Shown here piece after piece: positions 558 to 6,528 of a stretch of 34,003 bases of DNA. Position 1 is the stretch's first letter. Each line of letters opens with the position of its first letter. This stretch comes from an uncultured Balneola sp. (GTDB taxonomy: Bacteria; Bacteroidota; Rhodothermia; Balneolales; Balneolaceae): assembly GCA_913058495.1 (NCBI GenBank), contig CAJXQC010000031.1:1-34003 (forward strand). The letters run 5' to 3'. The position numbers and the translations under genes are program-made. A model generated the notes under the pieces. The model saw nothing but the letters and a program-made list of their open reading frames with translations, was not told the DNA's origin and ran no database searches.

Positions 558-1115
558 TTACCTGTTTTGGTAAAACCGATCTTTATTCCAATTCATCGGA
601 TTGGTTTTGATGTATTCCCGGATGTAAAACAACGATTCTTCATTTCGGATGATGTGATCATAATAACCTCGTTGCCAGATTTTGGTGCCCGGTGTTTTGC
701 GGATTTGATTGATTTGTTTGGCGGTATTCATTTTATACCAACCAATAATTTTTGGGATCAACATTTTACGTCGGTGTTTACGATATAATTCAGGGTTTAT
801 GTTCCTTTGTAGGGGCGATTCATGAATCGCCCCTACAAAGGGATTTGCATTAACAATTTCAATTACACCATGAATATGATTAGGCATAACAATATGCTCA
901 TGAAGAATGGTATTGGGATACCGGGTGTCAATTCGTTTCCAATAATATAATGCCAGAATCCCACATTCATTCATCTGCATTTCACCTTTGGTCACATCTC
1001 CGATTACATATTCTTTTTGATTGGTACAAATGGTGATGAAATAATATCCCGGGCTGGAATAATCGTATCCCTGCAAACGCATGGATTGTCGGTTTGGGAG
1101 TTTCTTCTGCTTCAT
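558..1115 (-). CDS. REP-associated tyrosine transposase (RAYT, IS200-like Y1 family)
   Basis: This is a single-domain Y1 (HUH) transposase of about 185 residues, the usual size for RAYTs, which nick and move REP palindromes as single strands. Motifs seen are an N-terminal RLQGYDYSSPGYYFITICT block, the metal-binding motif HIVMPNHIHGVIE, and WQRGYYDHIIRNEESL, which carries the catalytic tyrosine region. The start chosen is the ATG at 1115 (MKQKKLPNRQS), which fits family N-termini. An in-frame ATG at 1145 would add ten residues. The striking feature is the stretch VGAIHESPL between the HUH motif and the second half, which is the translation of a perfect palindrome (804-841). The gene is flanked by two truncated relatives on the same strand. 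It appears complete and may be active; its host range of targets is inference. Confidence 0.9.
   Translation of the reverse strand: MKQKKLPNRQSMRLQGYDYSSPGYYFITICTNQKEYVIGDVTKGEMQMNECGILALYYWKRIDTRYPNTILHEHIVMPNHIHGVIEIVNANPFVGAIHESPLQRNINPELYRKHRRKMLIPKIIGWYKMNTAKQINQIRKTPGTKIWQRGYYDHIIRNEESLFYIREYIKTNPMNWNKDRFYQNR
804..841. repeat. REP-type perfect palindrome 2 inside RAYT (38 bp)
   Basis: cctttgtaggggcgattca is followed immediately by its exact reverse complement, giving 38 bp without spacer. It lies inside the reading frame of the transposase at 558-1115 and is translated there as VGAIHESPL plus flanking residues without breaking the frame. Its core is shared with palindrome 1 (323-352) and, more loosely, with palindrome 3 (1251-1290). 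Confidence 0.85.
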
Positions 1116-1141
1116 GATATACAGTAAGACGGGTTGAGACG

Positions 1142-1290
1142 GCATTCCTTACAAAAATATCCCCGAGATTTTTCCAGATGTGTTTTGCGGATGAATTCGA
1201 CCTGTTTGGTAACGGATGAATTAAACAATGAATGTATCATTGGGACCAATTTCCATGTAGGGACGAATGGCGATTCGTCCCTACATGGAA
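1142..1290 (-). pseudogene. RAYT transposase remnant, C-terminal half
   Basis: Minus-strand translation gives LVPMIHSLFNSSVTKQVEFI followed by RKTHLEKSRGYFCKEC. This matches the RAYT segment IPKIIGWYKMNTAKQINQIR-KTPGTKIWQRGYYDH of the intact copy and, even better, the canonical RAYT pattern (IPxIIxSFKSAVTKQI). The DNA is also recognisably similar (tgtgttttgcggat is shared). The N-terminal half is absent: the fragment begins at a palindrome (1251-1290), in the place where the intact gene has its own. The last ~20 residues are missing too. It is a broken tandem copy upstream of the intact gene. Confidence 0.65.
1251..1290. repeat. REP-type palindrome 3 (18-bp stem, 4-nt loop)
   Basis: ttccatgtagggacgaat and attcgtccctacatggaa are exact reverse complements separated by ggcg. 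The half-site tGTAGGGaCGAaT is related to the GTAGGGGCGATTC half-site of palindromes 1 and 2 but is a distinct subtype with a small loop. It marks the 5' end of the C-terminal RAYT remnant. Confidence 0.8.
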
Positions 1291-1376
1291 TGTGCAATGA
1301 ACACACCGAATGTATACAGAATTACAGGCTCATTTTTTTTTCCTGTTCCCAAGCAAGTAGCAGAGCTGCACAAAAG

Positions 1377-1538
1377 CGCTTAAAAGAAGGAATGGTCTTC
1401 GCCTTCGACGGCTTCCACGCCTGGACCTTAGACTCCGGCGGAACCAAAACGATGAGCGAGGAAGAAATGGCAGGAATTACCGAAAACGGCGCGGAGTATT
1501 TGATTGCACCGCAGGAAGAGTTGGTTTTGGTGGGGTGA
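1377..1538 (+). pseudogene. C-terminal stub of an M24-like metallopeptidase
   Basis: The frame reads LKEGMVFAFDGFHAW, TLDSGGTKTMSEEEMAGITE, then NGAEYLIAPQEELVLVG and stop. The pattern (L+xGMVF near the start, then GG...E...T..G.E.L) resembles the last ~50 residues of M24 family Xaa-Pro aminopeptidases, where the late glutamate is a metal ligand. No upstream catalytic half is present. Immediately upstream another frame reads VPKQVAELHKSA before a TAA at 1381-1383, which looks like the preceding helix of the same protein thrown out of frame. I therefore read it as a 5'-deleted, frameshifted remnant cut off by the RAYT array. The family assignment rests on a short match and is tentative. Confidence 0.4.
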
Positions 1539-1551
1539 TTAGAATAAGTAT

Positions 1552-3531
1552 TTATTCGATGATAGGAATACCAATACTTTTCAAATAATTAAACGTAGGA
1601 TCATAATACTCTGGTTTTCTTGTATGATCTTCTTCATTTCCTTCTGGTACAACAATGATCATTCCCTGACGAGCTCTGGTGAGCAAAACTCGATAAGCAT
1701 TTTTTAGATATGTTTGACGTTCTTTCTTGTGAATGTTTTGCCATTTACTCCCTCTAAATGAATGAGTCTTCCAACCGCTTTCGGAGTATCGCAGGTCGCC
1801 ATCCCACATGATACATGACCAATCTAATTCTAGACCTTGAATATGAAATTCTGTAGCAACTTGTTCTAAGTAATAAGAAGAGCGTACGTCATTTTTGTCA
1901 TTTAGAAAGTAATGAATAGGATTCATTGGCGACTTAACATCGACTGCAAAAGGCTTTAAGCGCTCAGCTTGAGAAGAGACAACAAGCCCATAACGCTCAC
2001 TCCCACGCGCTTGTTTTTTAAGCCAGCTCTTAGCTTTTTTAAGATCACGAGTTATAACAACGGGATACTTGTTTGAAATACTAGCCAGAGACTGAGTCGC
2101 TTTATCTTTATCTAAATCTAATAAGTATTTTACAAATTTAGAAAGATTTTCGGCTCTAAAAGACCTCATCGAAACAGATAAATGCAATTTTTCATTTAAA
2201 TGAACTTTTGTGACTTTATTTAATTTCGAAATAGCATCTTCAGCTTCATATTCTGTTTCAGTAAGATTTGGGGAAATAAAAACCTCCCAATTATTAAACC
2301 GTTCTTTTATCGCTTTTAACCATTCTGAAATTCCTGCTTCACCTGTATTTATTTCTTGCCCTCCACCAACTAAACAAATTATTAAAGCCCAGTCATCATG
2401 CCGATCAAGACAAGAGATTAAGAATTCAGGCTCAGAAGAATCAAAGTCATCAATGCCCTTTCTTCTTTTCATAAAATTTGATGTCTGCTTTTTAGTCCAA
2501 GCTCTCTGCGCTTCATCAAAAATGGCGACATGATCTATTGGTGCTTTTTTATCTCTTAAATATTCATCCCTATAATGGTGGATATTTTGAATAAACGTCT
2601 TAACGCTTGCCCGGGCTCGGCTTTTAGTTAGCTTATTACCTCTTTTTTTTTCTCTTCTGACATTATCTCTTGCTAAAGCTTCCTGTAGAATTGTTACTAA
2701 AGGAGCGTTTCCAGAGAGGTATACACTTGCATCTCCATTTTGGTGGTTTAGATGTTCTGTGGCAACGTTCAAACCAACCAAAGTTTTTCCGGCACCAGGC
2801 ACTCCGGTAACAAAGCAAATATATTTTTTCTTTTCCTTATTGGCGCGATCTATCAAGTCCGAAATAAATGAAGTAGTTTCAGTTAAATTCTTTGCGCTAG
2901 CATCGTTTCGTGTAATTTCGTCAACAGAGTGTTTACTGTATAATGAGAGGGCAGCTTCTATAATGGTAGGCGTGGGAGCATAGCTACCGCTAGAATACCG
3001 ATCCCCATCAATAGAGTTGTCTTCACCTTGAAATTGAACAGATAGAACTAGAGTCTTTCTAAGATCTAATTTATTAGTTTTAATAGGAATAAATAATCCA
3101 TCATCATGCGATGTGGTTGAAATCTCGGGAGAAGAGCTTTTTGCATGAGTAGCCACTAATATCGGTATAAGAACTAAATCATGGCTTGGTTTATGAAAGT
3201 TTTTTAAATCTAATGCATAATCCCAAACTTGATCGATATCATGTCTTTGAAACTTAGTTTCACCGACTTTAAACTCTACTACGAAAATTATATTCTGTAT
3301 AACTAGCAATACATCAACTCGACGTCCCATTCGTGGAATAGAAAACTCGAAAAATATTTCACCATCAAAATCGATGAGGGCATTTTTTAAGATCTCAATT
3401 TGAGCATCCCATGCTTGACTTTGTGTATTGCGTGTATCAAAATTATCCGAAAGCGAAATTTCACCAATAATTTGAGAAGGTTCTTTCCCAAGAAATGATT
3501 TGATAGTGTCTCTATAAAAATAATTAAGCAT
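1552..3531 (-). CDS. PD-(D/E)XK nuclease + DUF2075 (SF1-type) helicase protein
   Basis: This 659-residue protein has two parts. Residues ~55-125 carry a restriction-like nuclease signature: RVDVLL (Asp73) followed by VVEFKVG (Glu86, Lys88). From ~235 on it is a DUF2075 helicase: Walker A GVPGAGKT (243-250), Walker B VAIFDEAQ (335-342), motif III-like VGGGQE (~388-393), SMRSFRA (~454-460), the motif V-like stretch ATEFHIQGLELDW (~559-571) and the motif VI-like stretch YRVLLTRARQGM (~613-624). All motifs are intact. Its start codon overlaps the stop of the 90-residue gene upstream (TAATG), so the two are probably translated together. Nuclease-DUF2075 fusions have been linked to antiphage defence (from memory, the staphylococcal Nhi type), and the setting beside transposase debris fits that. 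A general nucleic-acid processing role remains possible. Confidence 0.8.
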   Translation of the reverse strand: MLNYFYRDTIKSFLGKEPSQIIGEISLSDNFDTRNTQSQAWDAQIEILKNALIDFDGEIFFEFSIPRMGRRVDVLLVIQNIIFVVEFKVGETKFQRHDIDQVWDYALDLKNFHKPSHDLVLIPILVATHAKSSSPEISTTSHDDGLFIPIKTNKLDLRKTLVLSVQFQGEDNSIDGDRYSSGSYAPTPTIIEAALSLYSKHSVDEITRNDASAKNLTETTSFISDLIDRANKEKKKYICFVTGVPGAGKTLVGLNVATEHLNHQNGDASVYLSGNAPLVTILQEALARDNVRREKKRGNKLTKSRARASVKTFIQNIHHYRDEYLRDKKAPIDHVAIFDEAQRAWTKKQTSNFMKRRKGIDDFDSSEPEFLISCLDRHDDWALIICLVGGGQEINTGEAGISEWLKAIKERFNNWEVFISPNLTETEYEAEDAISKLNKVTKVHLNEKLHLSVSMRSFRAENLSKFVKYLLDLDKDKATQSLASISNKYPVVITRDLKKAKSWLKKQARGSERYGLVVSSQAERLKPFAVDVKSPMNPIHYFLNDKNDVRSSYYLEQVATEFHIQGLELDWSCIMWDGDLRYSESGWKTHSFRGSKWQNIHKKERQTYLKNAYRVLLTRARQGMIIVVPEGNEEDHTRKPEYYDPTFNYLKSIGIPIIE

Positions 3532-3803
3532 TATTTTATTTGTATAAAATATTCATGAATAAAATCTGAAATTTGCTCATGTTCGTCATCAAACTTTAAA
3601 ACAATACTTGAATTAAGAGAATCAATAAAAGAGATAATTTCATTTTCGTTGTTTAGCTCATTTAAAAAGAGAAGCAAGGGATTTTTAGGATTAAAATCGT
3701 CGTTCAAATAATATATAATATCATTCTTAAAAGTATCTCTATAATTAGTTGATTCTTTGTATAAATAAGTCTTTAAAGACCTGATCTTATTCTCGTATTT
3801 CAT
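3531..3803 (-). CDS. 90-residue protein coupled to the nuclease-helicase
   Basis: I do not recognise this small protein. It is rich in Asn, Asp, Glu, Ile and Phe, probably mostly helical, and has no signal peptide or membrane segment. The C-terminal half is acidic (FDDEHEQISDFIHEYF). The reading frame is real on circumstantial grounds: its TAA shares one base with the ATG of the nuclease-helicase (TAATG), and its ATG lies 7 nt after the stop of the oxidoreductase gene with a purine-rich AGTAAGAAA in front. The tight coupling suggests an obligate partner such as a specificity, sensor or immunity subunit, but that is inference. By eye its codons are more AT-rich than those of the neighbouring oxidoreductase. 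Confidence 0.65.
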   Translation of the reverse strand: MKYENKIRSLKTYLYKESTNYRDTFKNDIIYYLNDDFNPKNPLLLFLNELNNENEIISFIDSLNSSIVLKFDDEHEQISDFIHEYFIQIK

Positions 3804-3810
3804 TTTCTTA

Positions 3811-4839
3811 CTAGTTCGTTACCAAAACAACCTTCCCGATATTCCTCCGTTCTTCGATGTAGCGGTGGGCTTCGCCGGCTTCTTCGAGGGTGAAGGTTTT
3901 GTCAACATGCGGTCGAACCCAGCCGGTTTCTACGCCATCCAGAATGGCTTTCATCCATAAAGCGGCTTTATCAGATTCATGCCACAAATGACCGAGATTT
4001 ACGCCATACACGCCACGGTTTTTATCTAGCAGAGAAAGCGGTTTAAAGGTGGGCATTTTCAGAACTGTTTTTATGAGTTCGAACTTGGCTCTTAATCCGC
4101 CGGAGGAATTTATACTGGCAACGGAAATTCCAAACATTCCCAACCGACCGGTAGCACGAAGAGCTCGATAGCTTTTCTTCCATTCGTCGCCACCCAAAGG
4201 ATCGGTGATCAGTTCCACACCGCGTTTATTGGTCAGCTTCATGAGTTCGTCGAACCAATCTTTGTTTCTGTAATCAATGGGGTGATCCAATCCTCGTTCT
4301 TTAAGGAATTCATGCTTGCGCTCGCTGGCTGTTCCGTAGGTTTTGGCGCCAATGTGTTTGGCAATATCCAATTGAGCTAAGCCAACGCCACCACCGGCAT
4401 TGTGAATGAGAACGGATTCTTCTTTTTGGAGTCCGCCCATGCCTACCAATAACGCCCACGCGGTCAAATAGGTAACCGGAATGGATGCAGCCTCTTCAAA
4501 AGACAGCCTTGCCGGTTTTTCATACACTTGTTTTTCTTTCAGTACCACTTGTTCCGCCTGACCTTTAAATCGGCACAATCCGATCACTTCTTTACCGATC
4601 CAGCATTTATCAATTTCCGAACCAACTTCTGTAACGATTCCCGAGACTTCATAACCCATCACACACGGCGTTTTTGGTCCGTCGGGATATTGCCCTTTTC
4701 GGGCAAGGATATCTGCGAAGTTCAATCCGGATGCTTTTACCTGAATGAGGAGTTCGTCTTTGTTGGGAGTCAGATCAGGAACTTCCTGAACCTGAAGGAC
4801 ATCATAACTTCCGGTTTTGGTATAAACGAGTTGGCGCAT
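3811..4839 (-). CDS. MDR-family oxidoreductase, VAT-1/quinone reductase-like
   Basis: This is a 342-residue medium-chain dehydrogenase/reductase without the zinc ligands of alcohol dehydrogenases. The N-terminal GroES-like fold includes VKASGLNFADILARKGQYP (residues ~35-52) and GYEVSGIVTEVG, typical of the QOR/VAT-1 subgroup. The Rossmann NADPH site is HNAGGGVGLAQLDIAKHIGA (~146-165). It probably reduces quinones or enones using NADPH in the cytoplasm; the substrate is unknown. The protein is full length with an ATG start at 4839. It is the first of three closely spaced minus-strand genes, but the two downstream ones look like an inserted cassette rather than functional partners. Confidence 0.85.
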   Translation of the reverse strand: MRQLVYTKTGSYDVLQVQEVPDLTPNKDELLIQVKASGLNFADILARKGQYPDGPKTPCVMGYEVSGIVTEVGSEIDKCWIGKEVIGLCRFKGQAEQVVLKEKQVYEKPARLSFEEAASIPVTYLTAWALLVGMGGLQKEESVLIHNAGGGVGLAQLDIAKHIGAKTYGTASERKHEFLKERGLDHPIDYRNKDWFDELMKLTNKRGVELITDPLGGDEWKKSYRALRATGRLGMFGISVASINSSGGLRAKFELIKTVLKMPTFKPLSLLDKNRGVYGVNLGHLWHESDKAALWMKAILDGVETGWVRPHVDKTFTLEEAGEAHRYIEERRNIGKVVLVTN

Positions 4840-4911: not shown

Positions 4912-4981
4912 AACCACAGAGAGCACGGAGGTTTTTTGGGAAATGTTTTAACCACAGAGGTCACAGAGGTTTTGGGGAAGA
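4912..4981. repeat. ~70-bp direct repeat, copy 1
   Basis: This stretch, beginning aaccacagagagcacggagg and running through gggaaatgttttaaccacag, is nearly identical to 6189-6258. Each copy itself contains two tandem aaccacagag-type motifs. The two copies lie on either side of the small membrane protein gene at 5743-6183, in the same orientation. Partial inverted forms (ctctgtggtt at about 4994-5003) follow within 20-30 nt, so RNA from the region could fold back on itself. Confidence 0.75.
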
Positions 4982-4993
4982 AGTTTAATTATT

Positions 4994-5237
4994 CTCTGTG
5001 GTTATATGTTTTGACCCCATCTGTCTTCTCCTTGGATAAGGAGAAGGACTCGTTGATGAAATTTTGAATGTGATTCTGAATTCCCCTCCTTATGAAGGAG
5101 GGGCGAGCTGGCCAGGAAGGAGAATGTGAGTAGGAGTCGGGGAGGTCGGTGAGGTGAAAATTTATTTAAAACCACAGAGTGCACAAAGGTTTTTCGAGGG
5201 AAGTGGACTTTGATAATAATATCTGAACTGGTTTAAG
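4994..5237. repeat. nested hairpin and aaccacagag repeat block
   Basis: This gene-free stretch contains a 10-bp hairpin at 5024-5047 (arms tcttctcctt and aaggagaagg, including one G-T pair), an 8-bp hairpin at 5083-5103 (cccctcct / aggagggg), and another single copy of the accacagagtgcacaaagg motif at 5171-5189. None of the arms is followed by a clear T-run. The short open frames here are by-products of the repeats. I see no gene. Confidence 0.6.
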
Positions 5238-5277
5238 AGTCTCCCTCCCTAAAGTTAGGGAGGGAACAAGGGTGGGT
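5238..5277. repeat. 40-bp direct repeat with hairpin, copy 1
   Basis: agtctccctccct-a-aagttagggagggaacaa and onward to gggtgggt matches 6366-6405 with a single difference. Inside it tccctccctaa pairs with ttagggaggga around a 2-nt loop (5242-5265). The similarity to the other copy continues upstream (taatatctga ... agtct in both). Together with the 70-bp repeat, this means a multi-part module flanks the gene at 5743-6183. Confidence 0.75.
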
Positions 5278-5303
5278 TAGAGAATTGATACGAAGATTCT
5301 AAA

Positions 5304-6188: not shown

Positions 6189-6258
6189 AACCACAGAGTG
6201 CACAAAGGTTTTTTGGGAAATGTTTTAACCACAGAGGTCACAAAGGGATTAGGGGTGA
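6189..6258. repeat. ~70-bp direct repeat, copy 2
   Basis: This copy of the repeat at 4912-4981 begins 5 nt after the stop codon of the pilin-like gene. The central stretch gcac..aggttttttgggaaatg and the following aaccacagaggtcac are shared. Downstream, tctctgtgttctttgtggtt (about 6270-6289) is a near-complementary arm, giving an imperfect hairpin that could act as the 3' end of the gene's transcript. Confidence 0.75.
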
Positions 6259-6309
6259 AGGTATTTTGTCTCTGTGTTCTTTGTGGTTGTAAAGAAACCC
6301 ATCCCTGTT

Positions 6310-6493
6310 CCTTCCCTTCGTTGAGGGAAGGGGACGTTGTAATTAATATCTGAGTGGAGTTATAAAGTCTCCCTCCCTGAAGTTAGGGAGGGAACAAGGG
6401 TGGGTCAGGAAAGACAGGTAATTGTTTTAACCACAGAGCGCACAAAGGTTGTGAGACGAAGATGTTTATTTAGGCTCTGTGAACTTTGTGATT
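6310..6493. repeat. second repeat block: hairpins and 40-bp repeat copy 2
   Basis: This block contains the hairpin ccttccct-tcgttg-agggaagg (6310-6331), the second copy of the 40-bp hairpin repeat (6366-6405, stem tccctccctga / ttagggaggga), and another aaccacagagcgcacaaagg motif (6429-6448) with its near-complement ctctgtgaactttgtg (about 6475-6490). The order of parts repeats the order seen at 4912-5277. No gene is visible between 6184 and 6528. Confidence 0.65.
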
Positions 6494-6528
6494 AGTAACC
6501 GGAGAGTTCATGTTGGTATAATGAATTA

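What the first reader, a model, noticed from the sequence alone, without database searches (positions are those of the whole stretch)
1552..3803. Candidate two-gene defence unit: 90-residue partner plus nuclease-helicase
A PD-(D/E)XK domain (Asp73, Glu86, Lys88) is fused to a complete DUF2075 helicase and coupled by TAATG to a small unknown protein. The unit appears AT-rich by eye, is adjacent to transposase debris, and ends where no other gene of a pathway follows. Nuclease-helicase fusions of this type have been tied to antiphage immunity, but a dedicated small upstream partner is not something I know for them.
Basis: partly seen in the sequence, partly recalled or inferred. Interest (0 to 1): 0.65.

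Follow-up and report, generated by a model that had tools for sequence, protein, structure and literature searches.

The report
Swappable helper gene beside DNA-cutting defences
A small unnamed acidic protein sits here beside a candidate anti-phage nuclease-helicase, and its relatives sit beside many different restriction and defence systems in other bacteria, so it looks like a shared accessory of such systems and not the private partner of one enzyme.

Summary
The 659-aa gene is a full-length match to PADLOC's candidate PDC-S41 (PD-(D/E)XK plus SLFN-g3/DUF2075 helicase; catalytic residues invariant in 23 of 23 sequences). It is coupled by TAATG to a 90-aa gene ("small90") with no significant match in four family libraries. 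Together they fill exactly the gap between the stop codons of an ADH gene and a peptidase-gene remnant. In 6 of 7 genus relatives that site holds a different restriction-type locus: a defence hotspot.

"Dedicated partner" is not supported. Small90 is a conserved family (dN/dS 0.08-0.31; five-helix model, pLDDT 94; no fold match) found beside at least eight kinds of restriction or defence locus. Of 38 assessable intact copies, 37 have such a gene next to them and one has it two genes away. Of 4 broken copies, one is directly beside an intact system, one is two genes from an intact system, one is beside a methyltransferase remnant and one has none. Partner type hardly tracks the small90 tree. 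Only 2 of 22 PDC-S41 genomes in the phylum sample have small90.

Best reading: a horizontally exchanged defence cassette with a shared accessory, perhaps a brake on self-damage. The brake is inferred; PDC-S41 often lacks small90, so it is no essential antidote.

The parts
1552..3531 (-). PDC-S41 nuclease-helicase, 659 aa: N-terminal PD-(D/E)XK domain and C-terminal SLFN-g3 (DUF2075) helicase domain
   Evidence: PADLOC PDLC05014 E 1.7e-290; PF09848 E 1.4e-81
3268..3315 (-). PD-(D/E)XK catalytic core: D73 (3313-3315), E86 (3274-3276), K88 (3268-3270)
   Evidence: invariant in 23 of 23 aligned sequences
2782..2805 (-). Walker A, GVPGxGKT, residues 243-250
   Evidence: invariant except the x position in 23 sequences
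2512..2517 (-). Walker B acidic pair D339-E340
   Evidence: invariant in 23 of 23
3531..3803 (-). small90: 90-aa acidic all-helical protein of an unnamed family
   Evidence: no match in Pfam, PADLOC, PHROGs and one at E 0.16 in NCBIfam; 31-sequence family; pI 4.74; AlphaFold2 pLDDT 94.2; dN/dS well under 1 in relatives
3720..3746 (-). most conserved motif of small90, residues 20-28, N-Y-x-D-[ST]-F-K-x-D
   Evidence: Y21, D23, F25 invariant; N20, K26, D28 in at least 29 of 31
3529..3533 (-). TAATG overlap of small90 stop and PDC-S41 start
   Evidence: read
3811..4839 (-). zinc-type alcohol dehydrogenase/quinone oxidoreductase gene: right edge of the hotspot, core in the genus; small90 starts 7 bases after its stop codon
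   Evidence: 8 of 8 genus genomes; Pfam; the next genes differ between relatives
1365..1538 (+). 3' end of a peptidase gene (M24-type by my reading), left edge of the hotspot; its stop codon is 13 bases from that of PDC-S41
   Evidence: 84-90% nucleotide identity to the 3' end of a gene beyond the defence genes in G001, G006, G007; the fragment itself has no Pfam match
558..1145 (-). Y1/REP-associated tyrosine transposase
   Evidence: NF047646 E 1.7e-13, below its cut-off; PF01797 E 4e-4, below cut-off

Best explanation
This is a compact, horizontally exchanged defence cassette. SHOWN: two coupled genes fill the space between two flanking genes at a site where relatives hold other restriction-type loci. 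The large gene has an intact nuclease site and intact helicase motifs. The small gene belongs to a conserved unnamed family that keeps company with at least eight kinds of restriction or defence locus. INFERRED: PDC-S41 is a single-chain translocating nuclease that degrades invading DNA, in the manner of type IV restriction enzymes; NUDIX domains fused or adjacent to two homologues hint at sensing of modified DNA. Small90 is not a subunit of this enzyme but a modular accessory acting on something common to these systems. My leading guess is an acidic brake that limits self-damage when a nuclease cassette enters or is expressed. The parallel is that in one group of loci it is divergent from an XRE regulator that heads the nuclease operon, as a divergent gene can be in regulator-controlled restriction-modification systems.
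For: PDC-S41 full-length match and intact active sites. Hotspot: 6 of 7 genus relatives have a different restriction-type locus directly after the same ADH gene (some labels by reading, see full report). Small90 family: 31 aligned sequences, acidic in 32 of 32. Neighbours identified by Pfam and PADLOC. 27 of 27 assessable intact loci have such a gene within 463 bases; so do the window and the three further loci. In a later Flavobacterium sample, 6 of 7 new intact copies are directly beside one and the seventh is two genes away. Partner type is not significantly clustered on the small90 tree (19 changes against 20.6 shuffled, 32 of 200 as low), while K6, N20, D23, K26, D28, K70, D72 and D80 are each kept in at least 28 of 31. 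Eight loci place small90 divergent from XRE and the nuclease operon; in L069 a perfect 13-bp inverted repeat lies between (0 of 300 shuffles). NUDIX fused to PDC-S41 in L031 and adjacent in L103.
Against: L127 has an intact XRE-PDC-S41 beside a small90 broken by stops and frameshift, and L073 an intact McrB/DUF2357 pair two genes from a broken small90. 20 of 22 PDC-S41 genomes of the sample have no small90. So it is not an essential antidote. The R-M loci already have a methyltransferase for self-protection. The window copy has no XRE and no operator. In the seven XRE loci other than L069, the longest perfect inverted repeat is weak (12 to 220 of 300 shuffles reach it). The GACT...AGTC pair in 6 of 8 was picked after seeing the sequences, those loci are related, and L052 and L069 lack it. 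The NOV_C partner shows some clustering on the tree (26 of 500 shuffles as low). No fold match supports any function. An acidic pI is common and does not show DNA mimicry.
Confidence: 0.48

Rival explanations
1. Small90 is a guard or trigger: a separate small effector or sensor that backs up a restriction system when phage inhibits it, so it is carried with whichever system is present.
For: Would explain association with many systems and the conserved polar motif, presence beside systems that already have a methyltransferase, and survival of systems without it.
Against: No catalytic motif seen, no fold match, no known toxin or sensor family.
Confidence: 0.23
2. Small90 is a hitchhiker or a resident gene of defence hotspots with no functional tie to the systems.
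For: Eleven Flavobacterium loci share one site near an hpf-like gene, with similar small90 genes beside different systems. Two broken copies keep an intact system nearby (L127 adjacent, L073 two genes away), so loss of small90 does not go with loss of the system.
Against: Loci in Balneolaceae, Cytophagaceae, Weeksellaceae, Crocinitomicaceae and others have other flanks, yet a restriction or defence neighbour. Start-stop overlaps with the NOV_C gene recur (gap -7 in six loci and in L024). Found in only 15 of 239 Flavobacterium genomes, so not a fixed resident.
Confidence: 0.18
3. Small90 is the dedicated regulatory or structural subunit of PDC-S41.
For: TAATG coupling in the window; XRE-PDC-S41 with divergent small90 in 5 of 27 assessable intact loci.
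Against: 2 of 22 PDC-S41 genomes of the phylum sample; closest full-length PDC-S41 relative has HNH instead; 22 of those 27 small90 genes have other partners; L127.
Confidence: 0.05
4. PDC-S41 is a DNA-repair nuclease-helicase and not a defence protein.
For: RecB-like nuclease plus helicase domains also occur in repair enzymes (recalled).
Against: Sporadic (22 of 394 genomes), absent from 7 of 7 genus relatives, sits in a site filled by restriction-type loci in 6 of 7 relatives, next to such genes and regulators in some others.
Confidence: 0.06

Closest known systems
PDC-S41 (PADLOC-DB 2.0 phage defence candidate; single-gene by my reading of the name)
   Same: Same protein over the full length, E 1.7e-290.
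   Different: Here it is translationally coupled to small90; in relatives the coupled slot holds HNH, XRE or other genes, or none.
Schlafen group 3 helicases (PF09848)
   Same: Complete helicase domain match.
   Different: No Schlafen RNase core listed; the N-terminus carries a PD-(D/E)XK site instead.
Type IV PLD-helicase-DUF3427 restriction enzymes with NUDIX (PADLOC mREase_IV)
   Same: Nuclease plus helicase in one chain; NUDIX fused or next door; occupies the same hotspot in two relatives; also a small90 partner.
   Different: PLD nuclease and a different helicase family; only generic ATPase or helicase matches are shared.
C-protein controlled restriction-modification systems
   Same: XRE regulator gene precedes the nuclease gene, with a divergent gene on its other side; passages of PMC4824078 say that a C gene typically precedes and sometimes overlaps the REase gene.
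   Different: The divergent gene is small90, not a methyltransferase; operator evidence is firm only in L069; the window copy has no XRE.
Small restriction-modulating proteins such as Ral, Lar, ArdA, Ocr (recalled, not compared by sequence)
   Same: Small, acidic in part, acting on restriction systems.
   Different: Those are phage, prophage or plasmid proteins acting against resident restriction; small90 travels with the systems, and no relative was found in the phage or plasmid collections.

Membership tests
PDC-S41 | Full-length match to PDLC05014 | tested here: met
   residues 1-657, profile 1-652 of 657, E 1.7e-290
PDC-S41 | PD-(D/E)XK triad and Walker motifs intact | tested here: met
   invariant in 23 of 23 aligned sequences
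PDC-S41 | Proven antiphage activity | not testable with these tools
   no paper naming PDC-S41 in the held library; function is a PADLOC candidate label
Schlafen proteins | Schlafen RNase core domain | tested here: not met
   Pfam scan to E 1 lists only the helicase domain and other families, none a Schlafen core
Gabija, Hachiman (two-component nuclease-helicase systems) | Match to their PADLOC models | tested here: not met
   five families listed at E up to 1 in PADLOC for the large protein and none for small90; neither system among them
Dedicated two-gene system (small90 plus PDC-S41) | The two genes co-occur across genomes | tested here: not met
   2 of 22 PDC-S41 genomes; 5 of 27 assessable intact small90 loci
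Toxin-antitoxin or obligate immunity protein | Effector not found without its antidote | tested here: not met
   no small90 in 20 of 22 PDC-S41 genomes; L127
C-protein controlled operon | XRE regulator plus operator repeats upstream of the nuclease gene | tested here: inconclusive
   XRE in eight relatives' loci; significant repeat only in L069; post hoc GACT...AGTC pairs in 6 of 8; absent in the window
DNA-mimic restriction inhibitors | Small acidic fold laid out like DNA | tested here: inconclusive
   acidic in 32 of 32 sequences; no significant fold match; surface charge layout not computed

The most novel reading that the evidence does not exclude
Small90 is the first recognised member of a host-encoded, system-independent restriction accessory: one conserved helical protein, acting through one common target, that bacteria attach to mechanistically different DNA-targeting immune systems (with PLD, HNH and PD-(D/E)XK nucleases; type II, type IV, Ssp) to hold self-damage in check or to guard them against phage inhibitors.
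Probability: 0.32. Interest if true: 0.82.

Novelty: new variant of a known kind. Interest (0 to 1): 0.55.

Why it matters
Accessory proteins of restriction systems are normally thought of as belonging to one system. A small protein conserved across systems with different nuclease folds would point to a shared weak point of restriction immunity (self-damage, timing of expression, or phage inhibition) and give a handle on it. It would also be a genomic marker for restriction loci in Bacteroidota that present libraries miss, and it shows that the coupled slot beside PDC-S41 is filled by different genes in different lineages.

Tried and rejected
Dedicated partner: rejected on neighbour counts. 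Essential antidote: rejected by L127 and by PDC-S41 genomes without small90. Of four broken copies, L127 is beside an intact PDC-S41, L073 is two genes (1.76 kb) from an intact McrB/DUF2357 pair, L077 is beside a 74-aa methyltransferase remnant, and L128 has none of the reference families near it. I lowered the best explanation from 0.50 to 0.48 and the novel case from 0.33 to 0.32, and raised the hitchhiker from 0.15 to 0.18 and the guard from 0.22 to 0.23.

Weak small90 hits at E 7e-4 to 6e-3 (L013-L017) were dropped: L014, L015 and L016 lie inside large other frames (two of them helicase-like by reading), L017 holds stops, and L013 was not resolved. None came back in the profile search at E up to 1e-5. 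Viral contigs (candidates not confirmed), plasmids and phages gave no small90 relative. No solved structure by sequence (profile search best E 0.03, kinases, taken as chance; PDC-S41 best E 0.062). Foldseek PDB best E 2.6, viral best E 0.3; VIA best Z 5.5 to 8p49, below what helical bundles may give. The first AlphaFold run with 8 sequences was poor (pLDDT 56); 31 sequences gave 94.2. Literature: no paper with 'PDC-S41'; five with 'DUF2075', none of the library with 'DUF2075' and 'defense' together; listings only. [quoted passage not shown] PMC4824078 and PMC3874152 were seen as passages only.

The near/far control with PADLOC gives members per family, not per gene, and lists only 25 families (of 117 and 89), so it is a rough contrast. 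53 adjacent genes: TmtA models 8 (NOV_C genes), PDC-S41 5, one REase_II model 4, mREase_IV 3 members. 53 genes sampled from 130 at least four positions away: one methyltransferase-like model with 3 members, the other 24 listed with one member each, among them AbiE, MzaB and PDC-S02 models, so the far genes are not free of defence genes. In one search the reference proteins were picked from the neighbours themselves; their identity as restriction or defence proteins rests. L056 was left out of all tallies because the contig ends beside small90. The M24, hpf, AbrB, TPR and several Vsr, XRE and methyltransferase labels are my reading of sequence. The pI of L063 (5.20) was computed with extra upstream residues.
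Full report
OBSERVATION. The two frames exist as described. The 90-aa frame (3531-3803, minus) and the 659-aa frame (1552-3531, minus) share one base in TAATG. The large protein has a complete SLFN-g3 (DUF2075) helicase domain behind a PD-(D/E)XK domain, and it matches PADLOC's candidate PDC-S41 end to end. In an alignment of 23 sequences, window included, D73, E86, K88, the Walker A motif and D339-E340 are invariant. The 90-aa protein ("small90") has no match in Pfam, PADLOC or PHROGs and only one at E 0.16 in NCBIfam. The cassette is AT-rich (0.342; small90 0.231; window 5001-34003 0.392).

THE SITE IS A DEFENCE HOTSPOT. The ADH gene that ends 7 bases before small90 is present in 8 of 8 genomes of the genus. 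PDC-S41 is in none of the 7 relatives. Directly after the ADH gene, 6 of 7 relatives carry another restriction-type locus. G001 has an HNH gene and a NUDIX/PLD-helicase-DUF3427 enzyme, and G007 the same by reading. G002 and G003 have a Vsr-like gene (reading) and a methyltransferase. G006 has a C5-methyltransferase-like gene, an XRE gene and a 304-aa gene without a Pfam match. G005 has a DUF4007 locus like that of the Ssp locus L019. G004 has none of these. On the far side lies an M24-type peptidase gene (reading) in G001, G006 and G007; its 3' end survives at window 1365-1538 with 84-90% identity. The exchanged segment in the window is therefore just these two genes, between two stop codons.

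SMALL90 IS A REAL, CONSERVED FAMILY. A search of 394 genomes of the phylum found eight clear members including the window's own. A scan of genome contigs with a five-sequence alignment gave 30 loci. Thirty-one sequences align over the whole length, with K6, L14, Y21, D23, F25, F46 and I56 invariant. In 32 sequences the pI is 4.05-4.75 (5.20 for L063, computed with extra residues) and the net charge about -4 to -16. dN/dS is 0.08-0.31 in 8 close pairs, which share some sequences. AlphaFold2 with the 31 sequences gives a confident five-helix bundle (pLDDT 94.2, pTM 0.83) with no significant match in PDB or the viral library.

ITS NEIGHBOURS ARE RESTRICTION AND DEFENCE LOCI OF MANY KINDS. Of the 30 loci, two hold a broken gene (L073, L077) and one lies at a contig end (L056). 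The remaining 27 of 27 have a restriction or defence gene within 463 bases. By Pfam and PADLOC these are: NOV_C gene with C5 methyltransferase and an NgoFVII-C-like gene, NUDIX plus PLD-helicase-DUF3427 (mREase_IV), MrcB_N or AAA_5 gene with DUF2357/PDDEXK_7, another AAA_5 gene with an unassigned partner, HNH, Vsr, N6/N4 methyltransferase, a type II REase, and PDC-S41. One search adds an Ssp locus (L007), an AIPR locus (L011) and one more NOV_C locus (L012). As a further test I searched 239 Flavobacterium genomes: 15 have small90, in 16 places, 7 seen before and 9 new. Of the 9 new loci, 7 have an intact small90: 6 directly beside a system (one of them an HNH gene) and one (L122) two genes from a related HNH gene. 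Over all 42 assessable loci (the window, 29, three, nine): of 38 intact copies, 37 are next to a system and one is two genes away. Of 4 broken copies, one is next to an intact system (L127), one is two genes from an intact system (L073), one is next to a methyltransferase remnant (L077) and one has none of the reference families nearby (L128). L075 is counted as intact although its C-terminus is altered, and L066 stands beside a truncated enzyme.

PARTNERS ARE SWAPPED. On the small90 tree, partner type is not significantly clustered: 19 changes, shuffled mean 20.6, as low in 32 of 200; NOV_C alone is somewhat clustered (6 changes, 26 of 500 as low). Close small90 pairs have different partners: L007 (Ssp) and L048 (HNH); L052 (PDC-S41) and L053 (type IV); L058 (NOV_C) and L060 (PDC-S41); L059 (NOV_C) and L061 (PDC-S41). 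Position also varies: upstream, downstream with start-stop overlap, or divergent across an XRE gene. Seen from the other side, 22 of 394 genomes have PDC-S41 and only two of them, the window's and G178, have small90. The closest full-length PDC-S41 compared (75.5%; L004 is at 75.0% over 612 residues, its upstream side cut) is coupled to an HNH gene; others have XRE, a C5 methyltransferase two genes upstream, or no clear coupled gene.

HOW IT MAY WORK. For PDC-S41, the intact nuclease and helicase sites and the hotspot support a DNA-degrading defence enzyme. One homologue is fused to a NUDIX domain and another is followed by a NUDIX gene, as in the NUDIX/type IV pairs. This hints at discrimination by modified bases, but rests on 2 of 28 loci with a recognised PDC-S41 frame, some of them duplicates. 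For small90, constancy of a polar motif across different partners argues for one common target and against a partner-specific subunit. In eight loci small90 is divergent from XRE, which precedes the nuclease genes. L069 has a perfect 13-base inverted repeat between them (0 of 300 shuffles). In the other seven the longest perfect repeat is weak (12-220 of 300 shuffles), but six of them, related Flavobacterium loci, have a GACT...AGTC pair, a pattern I chose after seeing the sequences. It resembles the GACT-tat-AGTC operators of C.PvuII-like controllers (passage in PMC4824078). In such systems the nuclease is held back until the cell is protected (general knowledge). That parallel is why I favour a brake, at perhaps one chance in three; a guard against phage inhibitors is the next best. 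L127, L073 and the many PDC-S41 genomes without small90 show it is not an essential antidote.

KNOWN OR NEW. The nuclease-helicase is a known candidate. Small90 is unnamed in the four family libraries searched. I could not search the literature for it by sequence, and the keyword searches made were about its partners, so I cannot exclude that it has been mentioned. The finding is a new accessory family attached to known kinds of defence system.

Noticed in passing
L086-L092 (genus relatives), window 3811-4839 flank: The 3' end of the ADH gene is a strain-variable defence hotspot: several different restriction-type loci in six of seven relatives.
   Followed up: partly
L031:1495-3867(-): A PDC-S41 homologue carries an N-terminal NUDIX domain in the same reading frame (790 aa).
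   Followed up: partly
L103 (MT836127.1): A record named 'Bacteriophage sp.' (unverified) from a human faecal sample reads like a bacterial defence island: PDC-S41, NUDIX, Z1 (Pfam), and Vsr-like and C5-methyltransferase-like genes (reading).
   Followed up: partly
L069:7877-7979: Perfect 13-base inverted repeat between an XRE gene and small90 (0 of 300 shuffles).
   Followed up: partly
L055:8279-8464(+) and same place in L058, L060, L061, L065, L069, L075: A 61-aa Cys-containing gene (weak Zn_ribbon_Elf1 match, below cut-off) follows small90 in Flavobacterium and Algibacter beside different systems.
   Followed up: no
L086:3068-6442(-): The NUDIX-linked type IV enzyme of G001 ends in a peptidase S24-like domain (E 4e-5, just above the cut-off).
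   Followed up: no
L065:5192-5656(+), L075:5180-5653(+), L124:1221-1466(+), L127:8096-8554(-): Another small gene family of about 81-157 aa lies close to PDC-S41 or the type IV enzyme in several Flavobacterium loci.
   Followed up: no
L073:10019-14254(+): Intact McrB/DUF2357 pair two genes away from a small90 copy with an internal stop.
   Followed up: partly
window 4937-5284 and 6215-6496: Short intergenic repeats that match several places next to the ADH gene in genus relatives.
   Followed up: no
L048 (LKNA01000193.1): A MAG labelled Chitinophagaceae has a small90 94% identical to that of G026, a genome of the window's own family; the bin or its label may be wrong.
   Followed up: no
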